Source: a virus
IMG/VR virus record: IMGVR_UViG_3300046171_000225
Coordinates: 62,001-126,000 of that record
Reading direction: 5' to 3' (one strand)
DNA length: 64,000 bases
Shown: positions 1,295 to 40,148 of the stretch, piece after piece
Position numbering within the stretch: the first letter of the stretch is position 1
How the letters are laid out: every line of letters begins with the position of its first letter
Translations under genes and position numbers: made by a program
Notes under the pieces: model-generated
What the model saw: only the letters and a program-made list of their open reading frames with translations
Databases searched by the model: none
What the model was told of the DNA's origin: nothing

Positions 1295-3151
1295 ATGGAA
1301 ATTTCATCACAGATACTATCAGATATCACTGTTCACATGAAGTACGCAAAGTACCGAGAAGACCTTCTTCGTCGCGAGACGTTTAAAGAAATCGTAGACA
1401 GAAACAAGGCGATGCACATCAAGAAGTTCCCTGTTTGGGAAGACCAGATTGAGCACGCATACAGTTTTGTTTATGACAAGATGGTTCTACCCTCTATGCG
1501 TTCAATGCAGTTTGGTGGAAAGCCAATTGAAGTGGCTCCTAACCGAGTTTTCAACTGTGCTTACATGCCGATTGATGACCCTCGCGCCTTCTCTGAGGCT
1601 ATGTTTTTGCTGCTTGGCGGTACTGGAGTCGGGTTCTCGGTGCAGTCGCATCACGTCGATAAGCTTCCAGAGATTAGTCGTCCAAATCCTAAGCGAACTC
1701 GTCGTTACCTCATTGGGGATTCTATCGAAGGTTGGGCAGATGCTGTAAAGGTACTTATTCTTTCTTACTTTAACGGTACTTCAAAGCTGCGTTTCGATTT
1801 CTCGGACATCAGGCCCAAAGGTGCGCGACTTGTAACATCAGGTGGAAAGGCACCCGGCCCACAGCCTCTTAAGGAATGCTTAGTCAAGGTTGAGGGTATC
1901 CTCGACCGAAAAGAGAATGGCGAGAAGCTAACTCCTATTGAAGTCCATGATATTGTCTGTCACATTGCCGATGCAGTTCTAGCAGGCGGTATCCGCCGTG
2001 CTGCTCTTATCTCTTTGTTCTCTGCTGACGACGATGAGATGATTGCTGCCAAATCTGGCAACTGGTGGGAGACCAACCCACAGCGTGGTCGTGCAAACAA
2101 CTCTGTTGTCCTCATGCGTCACAAGGTCACAAAGGAATTCTTTATGGATCTTTGGGATCGTGTTAAGGCATCTGGCGCTGGCGAGCCAGGTTTCTACTTC
2201 ACATACGACAAGGATTGGGGAACCAACCCATGCTGCGAGATTGCTCTCCGACCTTACCAATTTTGTAATTTGACAGAGGTGAATGTTTCTAATGTCAAGG
2301 ATCAGGCGGATTTAGAGGAGCGTGTACGAGCAGCAGCGTTCATTGGAACACTTCAGGCAAGCTACACTGACTTCCATTACCTACGTCCTGTTTGGCAGCG
2401 AAATACTGAGAAGGATGCTCTTATTGGAGTCTCCATGACTGGTATCGCTTCCGGAGCTGTTCTTGGGCTTGATATGAAGGCCGCTGCTGAAGTTGTCAAT
2501 CAGGAGAACGCAAGGGTAGCAGCCATGTTAGGGATTAGACCAGCTGCTCGCACAACTTGCGTCAAACCAGCAGGCACAACTTCTCTAACGCTTGGAACGT
2601 CCTCAGGCATTCACGCTTGGCACAACGACTACTATATTCGTCGTGTACGAGTTGGAAAGAACGAGGCCATCTATGGCTACCTCTCGGAGTACCACCCGGA
2701 ATTAATCGAGGATGAGTTCTTCCGTCCACATGACACTGCTGTCATCTCTGCACCGCAGAAGGCTCCAGAAGGTGCCATCACACGCTCTGAGACGGCTCTA
2801 GAGATGCTTGAGCGAGTCAAGAGGGTTAGCGTGGAGTGGATTCGGACAGGGCACCGTAAGGGCCAAAATACTCACAATGTGAGTGCCACTGTTACCATCC
2901 GAGAAGAAGAGTGGGCTCTAGTAGGCGAATGGATGTGGGAAAACCGTGACCATTACAACGGACTTTCTGTGTTGCCTCATTCTGAACACAGCTATAAGCA
3001 AGCTCCATTTGAGGATTGTGACGAAGAAACCTATAATATGCTGATGAAGAGTCTAGCTGGGGTTGATCTGAGAAACATTATTGAGACTCAGGACGATACC
3101 GACCTCTCTGGTGAATTGGCGTGCGCAGGCGGAGCTTGCGAGCTTACTTAA
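1295..3151 (+). CDS. nrdJ: Adenosylcobalamin-dependent (class II) ribonucleoside-triphosphate reductase
   Basis: Reduces ribonucleotides to deoxyribonucleotides using a B12-generated thiyl radical, with no oxygen requirement and no separate beta subunit. Key cysteines keep the spacing of the monomeric Lactobacillus enzyme: Cys88 in FNCAYMP, radical Cys313 in NPCCEI, Cys324 eleven residues later, and a C-terminal pair CAGGAC. At 619 aa it is shorter than the about 740-aa prototype. ATG 1295 is preferred because GGGAG (1280-1284) lies 10 nt upstream; ATG 1286 would leave only 1 nt. The need for host cobalamin, and for glutaredoxin or thioredoxin as reductant (a glutaredoxin is at 12558), is inferred from the family. 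Confidence 0.93.
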   Translation: MEISSQILSDITVHMKYAKYREDLLRRETFKEIVDRNKAMHIKKFPVWEDQIEHAYSFVYDKMVLPSMRSMQFGGKPIEVAPNRVFNCAYMPIDDPRAFSEAMFLLLGGTGVGFSVQSHHVDKLPEISRPNPKRTRRYLIGDSIEGWADAVKVLILSYFNGTSKLRFDFSDIRPKGARLVTSGGKAPGPQPLKECLVKVEGILDRKENGEKLTPIEVHDIVCHIADAVLAGGIRRAALISLFSADDDEMIAAKSGNWWETNPQRGRANNSVVLMRHKVTKEFFMDLWDRVKASGAGEPGFYFTYDKDWGTNPCCEIALRPYQFCNLTEVNVSNVKDQADLEERVRAAAFIGTLQASYTDFHYLRPVWQRNTEKDALIGVSMTGIASGAVLGLDMKAAAEVVNQENARVAAMLGIRPAARTTCVKPAGTTSLTLGTSSGIHAWHNDYYIRRVRVGKNEAIYGYLSEYHPELIEDEFFRPHDTAVISAPQKAPEGAITRSETALEMLERVKRVSVEWIRTGHRKGQNTHNVSATVTIREEEWALVGEWMWENRDHYNGLSVLPHSEHSYKQAPFEDCDEETYNMLMKSLAGVDLRNIIETQDDTDLSGELACAGGACELT

Positions 3152-3157
3152 ACTAGC

Positions 3158-3206
3158 TTGACATCTCCTCACTTCTAGATTATATTTTTTCTGGAGGTGA
3201 GGAGAT
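3158..3206 (+). promoter_or_regulatory. Promoter nested in an RBS-masking inverted repeat
   Basis: TTGACA (3158-3163), 17 nt, TATATT (3181-3186) is a near-consensus sigma70-type promoter. A perfect 10-bp inverted repeat (3163-3172 with 3197-3206) pairs a segment inside the promoter with the Shine-Dalgarno and start codon of the next gene. RNA read through from the reductase gene would hide the ribosome site. RNA started at this promoter, about 3193, lacks the 5' arm. Confidence 0.65.
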
Positions 3207-3420
3207 GAATTTTAATCATTTATTGCCAAAACACGAGCTTTTAACCAAATGTGTAGGTGAAAAGCAGCACTCTTATATGCCCACTAGTCACATTGAGGCG
3301 ACTATTGGGCATGTCGCAATCCGGTTCAGATGTAAAAACTGTAATAAGTTGACAACAGTGTTCCTGAGCGATAGGGAATACAGAACACATGAAAAAGTTT
3401 TAGATAGGTTTGGAGTTTAA
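3205..3420 (+). CDS. Small CxxC protein, unknown function
   Basis: 71 aa, not recognised. One CxxC pair (RCKNCNK) plus a Cys and several His residues near the N-terminus could bind one metal ion, like a small zinc ribbon. GGAGGTGAGG lies just before the ATG, inside the 3' arm of the preceding hairpin. Its stop is directly followed by the GroES-like gene, so the two probably share the 3158 promoter. Confidence 0.7.
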   Translation: MNFNHLLPKHELLTKCVGEKQHSYMPTSHIEATIGHVAIRFRCKNCNKLTTVFLSDREYRTHEKVLDRFGV

Positions 3421-29283: not shown

Positions 29284-30234
29284 ATGTTTGACGACTGGGC
29301 TTGGAAAAGTTATGTTAATGTGATGACTGAAGCTAAGGAACCTACTCCGTTTAAGAGTAAGGCTCAAAAAAGGTACAAGAAGCTAAGGTATAAAAACGAC
29401 ATTTATACTAGAAATGGTGGTATCAAAAACAAGGCTTCTGGTGCTCCCTACTCTGGTGACTTACAGAGATTTGGCACTAGCAGTTTAAGATTTGAAAGTC
29501 TCACTGAAGAAGTAATAGATGGACTGGACGTTTCCAGTCTCAAGCCTCAGGACACTTTGTCTCCTGTTTTGTGGGACGGTAAAGAAATAGATTCACGCCA
29601 CAAGATGAAGCTCATTAGTATTGCCAATGACTTTGTAGATAGTCTAGGGCTTGATATAGAAATAAAAGATATACTTCTTGTTGGCTCAATGGCAGGGTAT
29701 AATTACTCCGAGCATTCTGACATTGATCTGCATATTGTTCTAGACTTTGGGGAGATAAGCACAGACCCCGAACTCCTTAGAAAGTATTTCTTCCTTGCGA
29801 AGTCAAAGTGGAATAGGAACTACAGGGTTACAATAGGTGGTCATGATGTTGAGGTTTACGCAGAGGACATAGGAGATGACCCTGTTCCATCTCCGACCTA
29901 CTCTCTTATGAGAGATGGGTGGATTTTAGAGCCTAGCAAAGAAGACGTTTCGATTGATTACGAAGGTGTTGTCAAAAAGGTAAAAGAAAAAGTTAAGCAG
30001 ATTGATGAGCTGCAGAACTTGCAGGACAGTGGAAATTATGAAGAAGCATACAATTTATCTTTAGCTATGAAAACAAAACTTCGCAACTTTAGAAAAAGTG
30101 GATTAGATGAAAGCGGAGAATTTTCCATTGAAAATTTAGCTTATAAAATTCTTAGAAGGTCTGGTGAGATAGAAAGAGTGGCAGACATTCTCAAGAAATC
30201 TTATACTAGTATGAGAGAGGATGATGGAATTTAA
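29284..30234 (+). CDS. Pol-beta-type nucleotidyltransferase with possible virion-targeting N-terminus
   Basis: 316 aa. The catalytic signature is Gly134-Ser135, then Asp146-x-Asp148 (SEHSDIDLHIVLD), with a third acidic residue in the HDVEVY strand (Asp188/Glu190). It would transfer a nucleotide to a protein, RNA or small molecule. Residues 1-16 (MFDDWAWKSYVNVMTE) fit the W-x-x-Y tag with an M-T-E near the end. C-terminal third is helical. If packaged, it could modify host targets at once on injection (inference). Confidence 0.8.
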   Translation: MFDDWAWKSYVNVMTEAKEPTPFKSKAQKRYKKLRYKNDIYTRNGGIKNKASGAPYSGDLQRFGTSSLRFESLTEEVIDGLDVSSLKPQDTLSPVLWDGKEIDSRHKMKLISIANDFVDSLGLDIEIKDILLVGSMAGYNYSEHSDIDLHIVLDFGEISTDPELLRKYFFLAKSKWNRNYRVTIGGHDVEVYAEDIGDDPVPSPTYSLMRDGWILEPSKEDVSIDYEGVVKKVKEKVKQIDELQNLQDSGNYEEAYNLSLAMKTKLRNFRKSGLDESGEFSIENLAYKILRRSGEIERVADILKKSYTSMREDDGI

Positions 30235-32369: not shown

Positions 32370-32427
32370 GGTTCCGATGGCTTCGTAGGGAAGCGGACTA
32401 CTCAATCTCAGTTTGCAGAGGTGCAAC

Positions 32428-33555
32428 ATGGATTTCAAGACTCTCAATCTCATTCTTTCCGACCTACTGAAGCAGGGGGACAGTTCTTCTAACTTCCCTA
32501 TCATGATCAGAGGTCGTCATGGCATTGGCAAATCGGAAGTGGTGTACCAGCTTGCCGCCATTCTAGGCATGAAAGTTGTGGAACGTCGCGCCTCGCAGAT
32601 GCAGGAAGGCGATCTTATTGGTATGCCAAGACAAGAGCCAGTTATCACTGATCAAGGAACAGAAGTTGCTACCTTCAATAGTTTTGATTGGTTAGTGGAG
32701 TGCTGCGAGAACCCTCGTGTGCTTTTCTTTGACGAGGTTGACCGTGGAGATCAACAAGTAAGGCAAGGCATCATGGAACTCACCGATAGCCGCAAGTTGT
32801 TTGGCAAGGTGCTTCACCCTGAGACCATCATTATCGCCGCTGTCAACGGCGGCAAGCATGGCTCCGAGTATCAAGTTGGGGAGCTAGACCCTGCGGAGGC
32901 TGACCGTTGGGCTATCTACGATGTTGAGCCAACCGTAGAGGATTGGCTTGATTGGGCAAACGGCAAAGTTAACCCACTCATGTGGGACTTCATTAACCAG
33001 AACCGTGATCACCTAGAGCATAAGGATTCGTTCGAGCCGAATGAAGTTTATCCTTCTCGACGCAGTGTCGTTCGCTTGGATAAGGTTTTGGAGCGTGCTT
33101 CTCTGTACGATAGCTACAAAGAAAATGTCGATCACATGACAAACATTGCGATGGGCTTTCTTGGTATGGGGACGGCCCTTGCCTTTGGCCGGTTTGCAGC
33201 TAACTACGAGTATCAGGTAACTGCTGAAAATATTGTTTACGATGGCCTGTGGGAAAAGACTAAAAGCTTTGGTTTGAACGATCATTTGGCAATGACTGTT
33301 AAGATTTCAAACAGCGGCATCTTGGATAAGAAGCTCAGCCCTGAGCACCTTGAGAATGTAGCAAACTACTTCGTCACACTTCCATCTGAGGTTGGGGCTA
33401 AGTTCTGGGTTCTCTTCTGCGGAAAGGCTCAAGACAACTTCCAGAACCCCAACTTGGTAGAATTCAGCAATACAACCGCTCGTAATGGCCTTCGGGTGTC
33501 AGAGCATTATAGCCAGATGTTGACAGGTAATGTACTAAAGGCTAAAGAAGACTAG
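32428..33555 (+). CDS. MoxR-type AAA+ ATPase
   Basis: 375 aa. Walker A GRHGIGKSE, Walker B VLFFDEVDR, sensor 1 AAVNGG and an arginine-containing lid identify a MoxR-family AAA+ that remodels or activates partner proteins with a VWA-domain co-factor, which is the next gene. ATG 32428 is preferred because AGAGG lies 8-12 nt upstream; the preceding in-frame TTG has no site. Confidence 0.85.
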   Translation: MDFKTLNLILSDLLKQGDSSSNFPIMIRGRHGIGKSEVVYQLAAILGMKVVERRASQMQEGDLIGMPRQEPVITDQGTEVATFNSFDWLVECCENPRVLFFDEVDRGDQQVRQGIMELTDSRKLFGKVLHPETIIIAAVNGGKHGSEYQVGELDPAEADRWAIYDVEPTVEDWLDWANGKVNPLMWDFINQNRDHLEHKDSFEPNEVYPSRRSVVRLDKVLERASLYDSYKENVDHMTNIAMGFLGMGTALAFGRFAANYEYQVTAENIVYDGLWEKTKSFGLNDHLAMTVKISNSGILDKKLSPEHLENVANYFVTLPSEVGAKFWVLFCGKAQDNFQNPNLVEFSNTTARNGLRVSEHYSQMLTGNVLKAKED

Positions 33556-33566
33556 GGAGGTGCGTT

Positions 33567-34763
33567 GTGTCATTTGACCTCGGTTTCCATATTCATAGGC
33601 TTCTGAGAGCAGAGCCTTTCTTCGCTTCTTTTTCGAGAAGAGTAGAAAAGGTGTCTGACAAGACAATTCCAACAGCCGCCATGTCTTACGACAAGGACAT
33701 CAAAAGATTTTGCTTTCTCTACAATCCGGATTTCTTTGAGAGTCTGTCGGATATTCATAAAGTTGGAGTGATTAAGCATGAGTTTTATCACTTGATCTTT
33801 AAGCATCTAACAGACCGGATTCCTTTTGATCCGGTCAAACAAGCAGAATTGCTTAAGATGTGGAATATCGCCGCAGACTTAGCGATTAACACCCACATTC
33901 AGAAAGAACTACCCAAGATGGCCTGCGTCCCAGGTCGTAAGCCGTTCAAGGATTATATTCCGGGATGTACTGCTGAGGCTTATTTTGAGGTCCTGAAGAA
34001 GGACAAACAGAACCAGCAGGGTCCTTATGCGCCCAACAACAAAGGTGTCCCACAAGAGCCTCAGACGCTAGACGATCACTCTGCGTGGGGCGCAGGGGAC
34101 CAAGATTCAGGAGGCTTGGACTCAAAGTTTGCCGAAGAGGAGCTTGCAGACATCACCAAAGACGCTGTTAAGACAGCGGAAGAGCGTAGCTCAGGGTGGG
34201 GGTCTGTGCCGCGCAGCGTACAGCAGACTATTAAGAAGTCGATCTCCAAGACCATCTCACCAGAGGCTGTTCTACGATATTTCATCAAGACCTCTTCCAA
34301 GTCTAATAAGAAGACAACGATCAAGAGAATCAACAAGAGATACCCGTTCATCCATCCCGGTAAGCGGTCAGATAGAGTTGCTAACATTGCGATCAGCATT
34401 GATCAGAGTGGTTCGGTCTCTGATAAGATGCTTCAAGTATTCTTCTCTTTTCTAAACAAGTTTGCCTCTATCGCAACATTCACTGTCGTTCCTTTTGATG
34501 ACACGGTTTGCGAGGAGAAAGTCTATGTTTGGAGAAAGGGAGAGAAAAAAGAATGGACTCGTGTTAGGTATGGGGGTACAAACTTTAATGCTCCAACTAA
34601 CTGGGTTAATAAAAGAAACTTCGACGGACATATAGTTATTACAGATATGCAAGCGCCAAAGCCTGTGGCCTCTAAATGTCAAAGACTTTGGATCACAGAT
34701 ACTTATAATAAGAAGTACTCGTACTTCAATACAAGCGAAAAGATTCTAGCAATTGATATTTAA
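33567..34763 (+). CDS. VWA-like metallopeptidase-fold protein (DUF2201 type)
   Basis: 398 aa, GTG start with GGGAGG upstream. The N-terminal half has HEFYH (His71, Glu72, His75), a metallopeptidase-like zinc motif. A Pro/Gln-rich linker leads to a C-terminal VWA domain with MIDAS DQSGS (about residue 278). This architecture pairs with MoxR ATPases in bacteria; here the genes are 11 nt apart. Together they probably form a chaperone-like complex that inserts metal or remodels a target, which in this phage is unknown. Confidence 0.83.
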   Translation: MSFDLGFHIHRLLRAEPFFASFSRRVEKVSDKTIPTAAMSYDKDIKRFCFLYNPDFFESLSDIHKVGVIKHEFYHLIFKHLTDRIPFDPVKQAELLKMWNIAADLAINTHIQKELPKMACVPGRKPFKDYIPGCTAEAYFEVLKKDKQNQQGPYAPNNKGVPQEPQTLDDHSAWGAGDQDSGGLDSKFAEEELADITKDAVKTAEERSSGWGSVPRSVQQTIKKSISKTISPEAVLRYFIKTSSKSNKKTTIKRINKRYPFIHPGKRSDRVANIAISIDQSGSVSDKMLQVFFSFLNKFASIATFTVVPFDDTVCEEKVYVWRKGEKKEWTRVRYGGTNFNAPTNWVNKRNFDGHIVITDMQAPKPVASKCQRLWITDTYNKKYSYFNTSEKILAIDI

Positions 34764-34764
34764 T

Positions 34765-34902
34765 TTGTGAACTAAGGAATATATGGTATAATGTGTTCAA
34801 TGTCAGTCACGAACACACTGCTGTTAAAAGCAGAAGCATCTATTGCAGTTGAAGGTTGACTAACGAGGGAGACGCGGTAAAGACAGCGACCCCTTAGTTC
34901 AC
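34765..34902 (+). ncRNA. Structured leader or noncoding RNA with promoter
   Basis: The 152-bp gap holds an 11-bp perfect outer inverted repeat, GTGAACTAAGG (34767-34777) with CCTTAGTTCAC (34892-34902). Inside are a 7-bp hairpin (34792-34798 with 34811-34817) and a 5-bp hairpin CTGCT/AGCAG (34818-34833). A promoter-like TTGTGA (34765-34770), 16 nt, TATAAT (34787-34792) overlaps the outer 5' arm. It may be a regulatory leader of the 34916 gene or an independent RNA. Confidence 0.55.
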
Positions 34903-34915
34903 ATCAGAGGTTAAC

Positions 34916-35428: not shown

Positions 35429-35504
<76 letters not shown>

Positions 35505-35510
35505 CTTTAA

Positions 35511-35585
35511 AGGCAAGTAGCTCAGTGGGAGAGCACTTGGTTTACACCCAAGCGGTCGTCGGTTCGAAACCGACCTTGCCTACCA
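35511..35585 (+). tRNA. tRNA-Val (anticodon UAC)
   Basis: Acceptor AGGCAAG/CTTGCCT, anticodon stem CTTGG/CCAAG with TAC at 35543-35545, T-arm GTCGG TTCGAAA CCGAC, encoded CCA. Only 6 nt after tRNA-Thr, so the two are one precursor. Confidence 0.95.
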
Positions 35586-35797
35586 TCTGGGGCCTTTGCT
35601 CGACGGGGCAGAGGAGTCGAAGAGAGCGCACACGGATCAAACAAAGAGCCGAGACCGGAAGTGATAGTCTCCGTCTGGTTAAGGGTTAATCTGAGAAGCC
35701 AATGAGAGAGACTCACTCTTGTCTTCGTCCGATACATAGCGGTGTGCGCCTCTTCTCCCCATTTACTTTATACTGAAATTACTTTTAGGTAGCCAAC
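35586..35797 (+). ncRNA. Structured noncoding element after the tRNAs
   Basis: 212 bp without a credible gene. GGGG (35605-35608), a bulged C and AGAGGAG (35610-35616) pair with CTCTTCT-CCCC (35750-35760). Then GCGCACAC (35626-35633) pairs with GTGTGCGC (35742-35749), enclosing about 108 nt with a further GAGAC/GTCTC hairpin. A local TCGAC/GTCGA (35600-35604/35616-35620) competes. GC-richer than its surroundings and contiguous with the tRNA precursor, so probably a co-transcribed RNA. The opening GGGGCCTTTGCTCGACGGGG recalls tmRNA 5' ends, but no T-arm or CCA end exists. Confidence 0.55.
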
Positions 35798-37111
35798 ATG
35801 CGTGAAGAAAGTTCTGTTGAGGAAAAAGACTATGAAAGTCATAAGGCTGCTATCTATAAAGTTTTTCCACTTTATTCAAAATATTCCTTATCGTACAAGT
35901 CCAGGATTATGGACTGGTCTGAGCAATACTGGTGGCGGGAAGAGAATAGGGAAAAGATTGAAAAAGAAGTGGAGCGACAAGGGCTAGAAGAAGATCCATT
36001 TGGTTTTGCCAATGTTGCCGACAAGATGATGCATGATATTATGTATCCGGAAAAAGACTTTTATATTGTTTACCTTCCGGAACAGTGTGTACACTATACC
36101 CGTTTTCCTGAAAATATATTAGAGGCGATGGTTAATGACCCTGATGTTACTAGCGTCGCTTATGCCGCTTTTGATCTAGGCGAGGTAAAAGAATGGATGG
36201 AGAAAGGAAAGCCTAGAGATTGGTACGAAAACGGAAGGTCACGCACTTTATCATATAGTTTTTCTTGGGAAATTCTAGAAGAATTTGATTGTGATCTAAA
36301 TCCTGACGAGCCACAGAGAAAGATGGATTTTTATCTTTCCGAAGAGGTCAAAAACGGCACAGAACAGAATGTTTTGAATAATATACCAAACATGCCCTCT
36401 GCTGAAGAAAGACAAGCCATTAAAGAGATGAAGTATGTTATCGAGCAGCTATGTCAGGAAGATTATATAAATTTAGTAGAGACTTACCGTCTAGTTATGG
36501 AAAGACATCTTGGTATTTGGGCAAGAGACTTAAAATGCTTTCCCAGCCCAGTAGATTTTATGATCGCCAAGTTTGCTGAAGATTTTCCGGGCTTTGATGC
36601 ACAGAGTTTCTACCTTCTTTCTTCTGCTTGTAAAGATTTTGTTATTCAAAGTGCTCAAAAACTCTATGAAGAATGTCTTAAGGAACAAGAAGAAAGAATT
36701 GCAGAACAACAGAAAAATAGAGTTACTTCCTATGGAGAGAGGTGCCTTAGGGCAGCTCTAGAGGCCAAACTTAAGACCAGCTTCCCGAACGTAAGACACC
36801 CAGACATTATCAATCCCGATACTGGATACCGGCTGGAGCTTGACTGTTATTCAGAGGCACTGCAAATAGCTTTCGAGTACCAAGGAGTTCAGCATTATGA
36901 AGTGTGTGAATTCTTCGGGGGCGAGAGAGCGCTACAGAAAACCCGTGGGAAAGATGAGTATAAAAAGAAAAGATGCAAAGAGTTAGGTATCAAACTTTTT
37001 GAAATTGATGACAGAAAGCTTAATTCAGACAAAGATAAAAAGAAAGCGCAGATTGAAGCTTTAGTCGAAGAACTTATCGAGACTCATGCTCTATTAAATT
37101 TAGTTACTTGA
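35798..37111 (+). CDS. Protein with C-terminal Vsr/PD-(D/E)XK-like nuclease domain
   Basis: 437 aa. The first 300 residues are helical/acidic and unrecognised. The C-terminal about 120 residues read RLELDCYSEALQIAFEYQGVQHYE, then a Lys/Arg-rich helix and KELGIKLFEID, the layout of Vsr/DUF559-like nucleases with Asp and Glu-x-Gln as the metal-binding pair. May be a free-standing homing or defence nuclease lying in the tRNA region; target unknown. Confidence 0.65.
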   Translation: MREESSVEEKDYESHKAAIYKVFPLYSKYSLSYKSRIMDWSEQYWWREENREKIEKEVERQGLEEDPFGFANVADKMMHDIMYPEKDFYIVYLPEQCVHYTRFPENILEAMVNDPDVTSVAYAAFDLGEVKEWMEKGKPRDWYENGRSRTLSYSFSWEILEEFDCDLNPDEPQRKMDFYLSEEVKNGTEQNVLNNIPNMPSAEERQAIKEMKYVIEQLCQEDYINLVETYRLVMERHLGIWARDLKCFPSPVDFMIAKFAEDFPGFDAQSFYLLSSACKDFVIQSAQKLYEECLKEQEERIAEQQKNRVTSYGERCLRAALEAKLKTSFPNVRHPDIINPDTGYRLELDCYSEALQIAFEYQGVQHYEVCEFFGGERALQKTRGKDEYKKKRCKELGIKLFEIDDRKLNSDKDKKKAQIEALVEELIETHALLNLVT

Positions 37112-38382: not shown

Positions 38383-38459
38383 AGGGCGGTAGCCAAGTGG
38401 TTAAGGCAGCGGTCTTATATACCGAAGATTCGTGGGTTCAAATCCCACCCGCCCTACCA
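38383..38459 (+). tRNA. tRNA-Ile (anticodon UAU)
   Basis: Acceptor AGGGCGG/CCGCCCT, D-arm GCC/GGC, loop CTTATAT with TAT at 38416-38418, first anticodon-stem pair mismatched (G-A), T-arm GTGGG TTCAAAT CCCAC, encoded CCA. It would read AUA. Most bacteria read AUA with a lysidine-modified CAU tRNA, so a UAU anticodon is notable. Confidence 0.88.
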
Positions 38460-38470
38460 CTTTCCGCTTA

Positions 38471-38489
38471 CACACCGGATTATAGTGTG
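38471..38489 (+). repeat. CACACCGGxTATAGTGTG repeat, copy 1
   Basis: A 19-nt stem-loop-forming element (CACAC/GTGTG) just after tRNA-Ile, repeated at 38714 before tRNA-Lys. Contains TATAGT, so it could double as a -10 box or be an RNA-processing signal. Confidence 0.55.
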
Positions 38490-38507
38490 ATAACAAAGGA
38501 TAATAAA

Positions 38508-38696
38508 ATGAAGTTTCTAGAAAAGAACAGCAAGATTTCAAATGGTTTTATTGTTGCGACCCTCCTGTCAATCGTGGGTTCAATCATAATTTGGAACACT
38601 GCGGGCTCTGACCCTGCACATATCGAGCGCCTTGCCCTGTTTGTTGGCCTCTGGGCTCCAACATTTATGGGCTTTGCTAACTATTACTCCGAGTGA
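38508..38696 (+). CDS. Small membrane protein, 62 aa
   Basis: Two predicted transmembrane helices (about 12-29 and 40-58). ATG 38508 has AAAGGA upstream; the longer in-frame reading would begin inside tRNA-Ile. Not recognised. Confidence 0.65.
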   Translation: MKFLEKNSKISNGFIVATLLSIVGSIIIWNTAGSDPAHIERLALFVGLWAPTFMGFANYYSE

Positions 38697-38713
38697 TATG
38701 TTAGTCTCGCTGG

Positions 38714-38731
38714 CACACCGGCTATAGTGTG
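38714..38731 (+). repeat. CACACCGGxTATAGTGTG repeat, copy 2
   Basis: 18-nt copy, here extended to a 7-bp stem GGCACAC/GTGTGCC. Lies 9 nt before tRNA-Lys. Confidence 0.55.
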
Positions 38732-38740
38732 CCAACCTTT

Positions 38741-38813
38741 GGATCCTTAGCTCAATTGGCAGAGCTCCGGACTTTTAATCCGTAGGTTCTGGGTTCGAGT
38801 CCCAGAGGATCCA
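38741..38813 (+). tRNA. tRNA-Lys (anticodon UUU)
   Basis: Acceptor GGATCCT/AGGATCC perfect, anticodon TTT at 38774-38776, one mismatch at the top of the anticodon stem, T-arm CTGGG TTCGAGT CCCAG. CCA is not encoded. Confidence 0.92.
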
Positions 38814-38836
38814 CTTTTATTTATTAGGATGTCGTC

Positions 38837-39061
38837 ATGAAACAGTATAGAAAAGGTGATCGTTTCGAGGTCTTGAAGAAAGGCGAAGATACGAGCGGCA
38901 GTAAGGTTTCTAAGGGATCTATCGTTGTCATGTACGACATGTCTCTTGGATGCAACCCTCCTCCCAGCAATAGTTTTTATCTGAAGATCAAAGGTGTGAC
39001 AACCGAAGGTCAAATAATTGATTGGCATCTAGACAGCAGATATGTTAAAAAGATTATGTAG
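38837..39061 (+). CDS. Small SH3-like protein, 74 aa
   Basis: Opens MKQYRKGDRFEVLKKGE, then SKGSIVVMYD and SFYLKIKGV, a KOW/SH3-type strand order like those at 7845 and 8012. No role known. Confidence 0.65.
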   Translation: MKQYRKGDRFEVLKKGEDTSGSKVSKGSIVVMYDMSLGCNPPPSNSFYLKIKGVTTEGQIIDWHLDSRYVKKIM

Positions 39062-39071
39062 GAGATAGAAA

Positions 39072-39170
39072 ATGTCGCTTCAGATATTTTTTTCTTTGGT
39101 CTTGTCTATTGGGTGGTTTACTGTTTGTGTTATTGCAGTTATCGCTCTTGCTAGTATACTTTGGGAATAA
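39072..39170 (+). CDS. Tiny membrane peptide, 32 aa
   Basis: Almost all hydrophobic, one transmembrane helix (SLVLSIGWFTVCVIAVIALA). AGGAG 7-11 nt upstream of ATG 39072. Confidence 0.55.
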   Translation: MSLQIFFSLVLSIGWFTVCVIAVIALASILWE

Positions 39171-39184
39171 TAAGGAGGTAGAAA

Positions 39185-39259
39185 ATGTTTGACTGGGCAG
39201 ATTTTTCTGTTTTGATGATCATGATTGCACATTTTGTTGCTTTGGTTCCTTCCTTCTAA
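39185..39259 (+). CDS. Tiny membrane peptide, 24 aa
   Basis: MFDWADF followed by one hydrophobic helix. AAGGAGG seven nt upstream is a strong ribosome site, which is the main support for such a short gene. Confidence 0.42.
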   Translation: MFDWADFSVLMIMIAHFVALVPSF

Positions 39260-39302
39260 TTACAGAGGGAGGGAATATTATTTGGTAGCTAAGAGAGAAG
39301 AA

Positions 39303-39797
39303 ATGTACATGTACCAAGCATTGAAGCTAGACGCTTCCTACAGGCCGATTGGCATTGTACCGTCGCTGGATGCCTTGGTTTCTTCTATCGTAGGAAAATC
39401 AACAGTTCTTGAGACCCACGATAAATATATTTCTTCAGCTCGTGCTACATTTGCTTTACCATCAGTGATCGTAATCGACAGGGTTGCGAAGAAAGGAAAA
39501 ACATTTCCTTGCAACAGAAACAATGTCTTTATTAGAGACTGTGGAATTTGTCAGTATTGCAGCAAGAAACTGACTAAAGCAACATGCACTCTTGATCACG
39601 TTATTCCGAGAAGTAAAGGCGGAAACCTATCTTGGGATAATATTGTTTTGTGCTGTATGCCATGCAACCAGAAGAAAGGGTCAAAAACTCTTTCACAAAC
39701 TGGGATGAAACTTTTACGTCAACCCAAGCCTCTGTCCTATAGAGAGTATCTTTTGAACAATCCTCTTGACAGTGAGTCTTGGAAGGACTACATATAG
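39303..39797 (+). CDS. HNH endonuclease
   Basis: 164 aa. CGICQYCSKKL, LDHVIPRSKGGN and CCMPCNQKKG form a four-Cys-zinc HNH nuclease (His in DHV). ATG 39303 is chosen; earlier in-frame codons lie over the preceding tiny gene. The N-terminal half (YQALKLDASYRPIGIVP) is shared by many phage HNH proteins. Position between tRNA genes fits a mobile endonuclease, or a phage packaging-associated HNH. Confidence 0.85.
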   Translation: MYMYQALKLDASYRPIGIVPSLDALVSSIVGKSTVLETHDKYISSARATFALPSVIVIDRVAKKGKTFPCNRNNVFIRDCGICQYCSKKLTKATCTLDHVIPRSKGGNLSWDNIVLCCMPCNQKKGSKTLSQTGMKLLRQPKPLSYREYLLNNPLDSESWKDYI

Positions 39798-39805
39798 TTT
39801 TATAA

Positions 39806-39882
<77 letters not shown>

Positions 39883-39902
39883 CTTTACAACATGGAGTAG
39901 TC

Positions 39903-40066
39903 ATGACACGCGAAGAAATGATTGATGCTATCGTAAATGATGTAGACAATTGGGATCTAGACAATATTTTTGAATGGATTCAGAACGAGATGCGTGTTAA
40001 ACTCAATGGCCTATCAATTGATGATATTGCCGAAGAGTATTCCATGGTAGCAAGTAACGAACATTA

Positions 40067-40067
<1 letters not shown>
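39903..40067 (+). CDS. Small acidic protein, 54 aa, ending on a tRNA
   Basis: Opens MTREEMIDAIVNDVDNWDLDN; acidic and helical. GGAG lies upstream. The last base of its TAG stop is the first base of tRNA-Leu(UAG), so tRNA 5' processing would cut at its stop codon. Confidence 0.65.

Positions 40068-40148
<81 letters not shown>

What the first reader, a model, noticed from the sequence alone, without database searches (positions are those of the whole stretch)
35586..35797. Structured RNA element 2 directly after tRNA-Val, with a tmRNA-like opening
A long helix (4+7+8 bp with bulges) encloses about 108 nt and inner hairpins. It is contiguous with the tRNA precursor, so tRNA processing would release it. 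GGGGCCTTTGCTCGACGGGG resembles the conserved tmRNA 5' end, yet there is no T-arm, tag ORF or CCA. It may be a decayed or repurposed tmRNA, or a new phage RNA.
Basis: partly seen in the sequence, partly recalled or inferred. Interest (0 to 1): 0.65.

Follow-up and report, generated by a model that had tools for sequence, protein, structure and literature searches.

The report
Orphan structured RNA after phage tRNA-Val
Between a phage tRNA gene and a homing-endonuclease-like gene lies a 175-base stretch that would fold into a strong three-armed RNA; it is not a tmRNA, has no relative we could find, and in layout looks most like the unexplained small RNAs (rnaC, rnaD) of the tRNA cluster of phage T4.

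Summary
The fold is real as a prediction. Window 35588-35762 (+) starts two bases after the CCA of tRNA-Val. MFE is -72.5 kcal/mol, z = -4.17, 0 of 1000 shuffles as stable; about 0.7% of 175-nt windows across the 64 kb score as low. It fills most of a 212-nt gap without a credible gene.

The tmRNA reading fails: no Rfam tmRNA model matches, ARAGORN finds none, there is no T-arm, and the 'tmRNA-like' letters sit inside the 9-bp hairpin.

No homologue turned up in Rfam, annotated phages, IMG/VR pattern scans or 28 related viral records. The only other viral contig with this tRNA-Val lacks both the RNA and the endonuclease-like ORF that starts 36 nt downstream. So there is no covariation evidence and no proof that an RNA is made.

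The closest analogue in layout is T4's tRNA cluster, where rnaD/rnaC follow tRNA-Arg and the homing endonuclease gene segB sits next door. Best reading: a lineage-specific structured RNA on the tRNA transcript, a stable small RNA and/or a leader of the endonuclease mRNA. Modest interest.

The parts
35588..35762 (+). Predicted structured RNA, three-way junction
   Evidence: z -4.17, 0 of 1000 shuffles; fold
35588..35592 (+). P1 5' strand UGGGG, pairs with 35757-35761 CCCCA
   Evidence: pair probability 0.50-0.95 by context
35593..35614 (+). P2 hairpin, 9 bp, loop GACG; holds the letters that resemble tmRNA
   Evidence: pair probability 0.97-1.00
35619..35635 (+). P3 5' strand, GAAGAG(A)GCGCACAC and one further pair
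   Evidence: pair probability 0.98 in all contexts
35740..35755 (+). P3 3' strand, GTGTGCGCCTCTTC with one further pair
35646..35730 (+). Upper part of the long arm: imperfect helices and terminal loop
   Evidence: pair probability 0.3-0.9
35511..35585 (+). tRNA-Val (anticodon TAC) with encoded CCA, immediately upstream
35429..35504 (+). tRNA-Thr (anticodon TGT)
35798..37111 (+). ORF of 437 codons; C-terminal part resembles phage homing-type endonucleases
   Evidence: phrog_559 E 1.7e-15, phrog_9084 E 5.9e-14
35772..35792 (+). Weak hairpin over the putative ribosome-binding site AGGTAG
   Evidence: GGUA mostly paired in extended folds, but the local fold is weak, -2.8 kcal/mol, z +0.77

Best explanation
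A lineage-specific structured RNA is transcribed as the 3' continuation of the tRNA-Thr/tRNA-Val transcript of a 163-kb phage. Maturation of the tRNA-Val 3' end would cut just after CCA, leaving an RNA that begins with the closing stem of a three-way junction. A second cut in the AU-rich spacer before the endonuclease gene would free about 175 nt as a stable small RNA, as with rnaC and rnaD of the T4 tRNA cluster. The compact fold would shield it from exonucleases and separate the tRNAs from the downstream message. Shown: sequence, absence of a credible gene, predicted fold, gene order. Inferred: transcription, processing, stability and any function in trans.
For: Fold much stronger than shuffles. 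Pairing of hairpin and lower arm robust in long contexts. One of the longest gaps of the window, 212 nt. GC 54% in a 44% window, reached by about 5% of stretches. Same strand as, and contiguous with, two tRNA genes. T4 has a similar layout: tRNA-Arg, 1-nt gap, rnaD (119 nt), rnaC (139 nt), with segB beside them. T4 rnaC has a similar fold z, -4.57, and both T4 RNAs are made (PMC3014915, PMC9697503).
Against: No homologue, hence no covariation. z is sensitive to the chosen ends. T4 rnaD shows no unusual fold (z -0.83), so fold strength is not a hallmark of that kind. No own promoter and no terminator found. No sign that an RNA accumulates.
Confidence: 0.45

Rival explanations
1. A cis-acting leader of the endonuclease gene: the fold and the weak hairpin over the ribosome-binding site keep translation low and separate the endonuclease message from the tRNA precursor, as RNA structures do for mobE (shown) and segB (implied).
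For: The endonuclease-like ORF starts 36 nt after the fold. Both are absent together from the relative with the same tRNA-Val. AGGUAG is largely paired in extended folds. Precedent in PMC3014915.
Against: The strong fold ends before the ribosome site; the hairpin over it is weak, z +0.77. 175 nt is more than such leaders need. The whole tRNA-Val to tRNA-Ile stretch differs in the relative, so joint absence is weak evidence.
Confidence: 0.3
2. A spacer or relic that folds well by chance or because of its GC-rich, repetitive GAGA-like composition, without a selected function.
For: No relative anywhere searched. Other windows reach similar z (5 of 720). The z depends on the ends chosen.
Against: 0 of 1000 shuffles with the same dinucleotides. 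Closing stem, hairpin and arm meet in one junction that spans almost the exact gap between tRNA-Val and the next gene.
Confidence: 0.22
3. A decayed or repurposed tmRNA.
For: GGGGC-N6-TCGACGGG occurs once in the window and in none of 100 shuffles, though the pattern was drawn up after seeing the sequence.
Against: No tmRNA model match at E up to 10, none in the whole record, no ARAGORN call. The letters form a hairpin; no T-arm.
Confidence: 0.03

Closest known systems
Phage T4 rnaC and rnaD (species 1 and 2 RNA) in the T4 tRNA cluster
   Same: Small RNA directly downstream of a phage tRNA gene, same strand, in a cluster with a free-standing homing endonuclease gene (segB); unknown function; similar size; rnaC as strongly folded (PMC3014915)
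   Different: Our model does not match them. rnaC ends in a T-arm-like hairpin, CCGGGUUCGAAUCCCGG, which our element lacks. Gene order around the nuclease differs. The T4 RNAs are experimentally seen; ours is only predicted.
Leader structures of free-standing homing endonuclease genes (Aeh1 mobE, T4 segB)
   Same: Structured non-coding RNA just upstream of an endonuclease gene; segB also lies among tRNAs (PMC2988022, PMC3014915)
   Different: Here the strong fold lies upstream of, not over, the ribosome site; segB is of the GIY-YIG family, whereas this ORF matches other endonuclease families.
tmRNA (RF00023 and permuted forms)
   Same: A few letters of the 5' end
   Different: No model match, no T-arm, letters in a hairpin
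GOLLD and ROOL, large ornate RNAs
   Same: Non-coding RNAs found in phages, often near tRNA genes (own knowledge)
   Different: Several times larger (own knowledge); no Rfam match here

Membership tests
tmRNA | Match to a tmRNA covariance model or an ARAGORN tmRNA call | tested here: not met
tmRNA | tRNA-like domain: acceptor stem with T-arm and CCA | tested here: not met
   The closing stem is 5 bp without a T-arm; the upstream CCA belongs to a complete tRNA-Val
T4 rnaC/rnaD-like phage tRNA-cluster RNA | Sequence or structure homology to rnaC or rnaD | tested here: not met
   Model R1 against the T4 tRNA region, filters off: only noise, best 8.7 bits outside both genes
T4 rnaC/rnaD-like phage tRNA-cluster RNA | Non-coding and contiguous with phage tRNA genes on one strand | tested here: met
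   T4 layout
T4 rnaC/rnaD-like phage tRNA-cluster RNA | Accumulates as a discrete stable RNA in infection | not testable with these tools
   Needs RNA from infected cells
Homing endonuclease leader | Structure sequesters the ribosome-binding site | tested here: inconclusive
   GGUA mostly paired in extended folds, but the local hairpin is weak, z +0.77
Homing endonuclease leader | Downstream gene is a homing-type endonuclease | tested here: inconclusive
   phrog_559 and phrog_9084 match residues 299-425, but no Pfam or NCBIfam family and no usable structure model; activity not testable
Any Rfam 15 family | Score above the gathering threshold | tested here: not met

The most novel reading that the evidence does not exclude
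A new family of phage small RNA with a three-way-junction fold, released by tRNA maturation and carried with a homing-type endonuclease as one mobile cassette inside a phage tRNA cluster, acting in trans on host translation, RNA turnover or tRNA-targeting defences.
Probability: 0.12. Interest if true: 0.6.

Novelty: new member of a known kind. Interest (0 to 1): 0.33.

Why it matters
If an RNA is made, it adds a second, unrelated phage lineage to the T4 pattern of structured RNAs of unknown function in a tRNA cluster with a homing endonuclease. That would suggest the arrangement is recurrent rather than a T4 oddity, and give a second system for asking what such RNAs do.

Tried and rejected
tmRNA of any form: no model match. 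Other Rfam families: only hits to eukaryotic lncRNA, snoRNA and miRNA families below their gathering scores. Intron, 6S, pRNA, retron or omega-RNA readings: considered; no Rfam family of these kinds matched at E up to 10, and the downstream ORF has no Pfam domain above threshold. Protein coding: the ORFs that cross into the gap run through tRNA genes. Homologues: blastn in 50,697 phage records gave only short chance matches. Two IMG/VR patterns built on the element gave 0 hits. A covariance model from the single sequence found only the element itself in its own 163-kb record and 28 related records; its reach to distant relatives is limited because it rests on one sequence. Scans with the downstream ORF found no close relative in IMG/VR or GTDB genomes. 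The AlphaFold model of that ORF from one sequence is unusable (pLDDT 38), so no fold search was run. The GP88 scan gave no relatives.

Full report
What is there. The window lies in a 163,026-base viral record with phage replication genes such as a DnaB-like helicase, a DNA polymerase, a ribonucleotide reductase and a GroEL-like chaperonin. Around 35 kb there is a same-strand tRNA cluster: Leu 35137, Thr 35429, Val 35511, and further tRNAs from 38383 to 40148. tRNA-Val ends with an encoded CCA at 35585. The next gene, an ORF of 437 codons, starts at 35798. The 212 nt between are among the largest gaps in the window by a simple gene caller.

The fold. Bases 35588-35762 fold to -72.5 kcal/mol. 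None of 1000 dinucleotide shuffles reaches that, z = -4.17 (one search gives -4.18 for 35586-35762). The base is a three-way junction: P1 UGGGG/CCCCA, P2 a 9-bp hairpin CCUUUGCUC-GACG-GGGCAGAGG, and P3 a long arm of 6 and 8 bp with a bulged A, enclosing 108 nt. P2 and the lower part of P3 keep pair probabilities of 0.97-1.00 when up to about 860 nt of context is added, P1 0.50-0.95, the upper arm 0.3-0.9. Caveats: the boundaries were chosen to fit, shifts of 5-10 nt reduce z to between -1.8 and -3.6, and 5 of 720 windows of the same length reach -4.2. The region is GC-rich, 54% against 44% for the window.

Not a tmRNA. Rfam scans down to E = 10, of the region and of the element alone, give no tmRNA model of any kind. 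ARAGORN gives none, and none is found in the whole record while all 14 control genomes ring. The tmRNA-like string does occur just once in the window, but the pattern was drawn up after seeing it and it is part of the P2 hairpin. There is no T-arm, and the adjoining CCA belongs to a complete tRNA.

Relatives. The nearest relative with this tRNA cluster is L002 (IMGVR_UViG_3300030330_005874), 64% identical in a neighbouring ATPase. It has Leu, Thr, Ala and Val tRNAs in the same order, and a tRNA-Val that differs from the window's by only a few bases. It is the only IMG/VR contig holding the tRNA-Val 3' pattern. There, tRNA-Val is followed within about 55 nt by an unrelated gene, so both the RNA and the endonuclease-like ORF are absent, and the whole stretch up to tRNA-Ile is different. 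A covariance model built from the single sequence finds only the element itself in its own record and nothing in 28 related records, and only noise in L002 and the T4 tRNA region with filters off. Blastn in the phage collection gives only short chance matches. Covariation therefore cannot be tested.

The neighbour ORF. Its residues 299-425 match phage endonuclease families annotated HNH or homing (phrog_559, phrog_9084). No Pfam or NCBIfam family is reached, and a single-sequence structure model failed. Its GC3 of 35% is lower than that of most genes compared, as is common for mobile genes, though one other gene of the window (29284-30234) is similar.

Comparison. T4's tRNA cluster has rnaD one base after tRNA-Arg, rnaC after that, and the homing endonuclease gene segB between tRNA-Ile and tRNA-Arg. 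[quoted passage not shown] A later study classes RNAC and RNAD as late RNAs and validates them by Northern blot (PMC9697503). rnaC folds with z -4.57 but rnaD with -0.83. The resemblance is in layout only; sequence and structure are not shared.

Mechanism. I favour a structured segment on the tRNA transcript that tRNA 3' maturation would separate, left as a stable small RNA (0.45). A cis leader of the endonuclease comes next (0.30), then a fold without selected function (0.22), then a tmRNA remnant (0.03). The first two can both be true. No promoter-like site was found inside the element and no intrinsic terminator after it, so both ends would have to come from processing; that is inference.

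Verdict. A genuine predicted structure, an orphan, and a new example of a known but poorly understood arrangement. Interest is modest because nothing shows that an RNA is made or conserved.

Noticed in passing
34764-34912: Another structured gap upstream of the tRNA cluster: a perfect 12-bp closing helix TGTGAACTAAGG/CCTTAGTTCACA around about 120 nt, z -3.17. Its 5' arm overlaps a promoter-like TTGTGA-16-TATAAT. Absent from L002, where the gap is 25 bases.
   Followed up: partly
38468-38490 and 38711-38734: Two similar palindromic boxes, CACACCGG..TATAGTGTG, before and after the small ORF between tRNA-Ile and tRNA-Lys, with a TATAGT that could be a -10 element; a possible repeated promoter-operator.
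   Followed up: no
39225-39797: A second endonuclease gene (HNH, Pfam HNH_5 E 3.4e-17) sits between tRNA-Lys and tRNA-Arg in the same cluster.
   Followed up: no
3051-3325: Strongest fold z-scores of the scan (-5.6 to -6.7), around the inverted repeat 3162-3179/3190-3207, just after a ribonucleotide reductase gene.
   Followed up: no
32413-34763: AAA ATPase (AAA_5) followed by a DUF2201 metallopeptidase/VWA-like protein, each also found in several related viral contigs.
   Followed up: no
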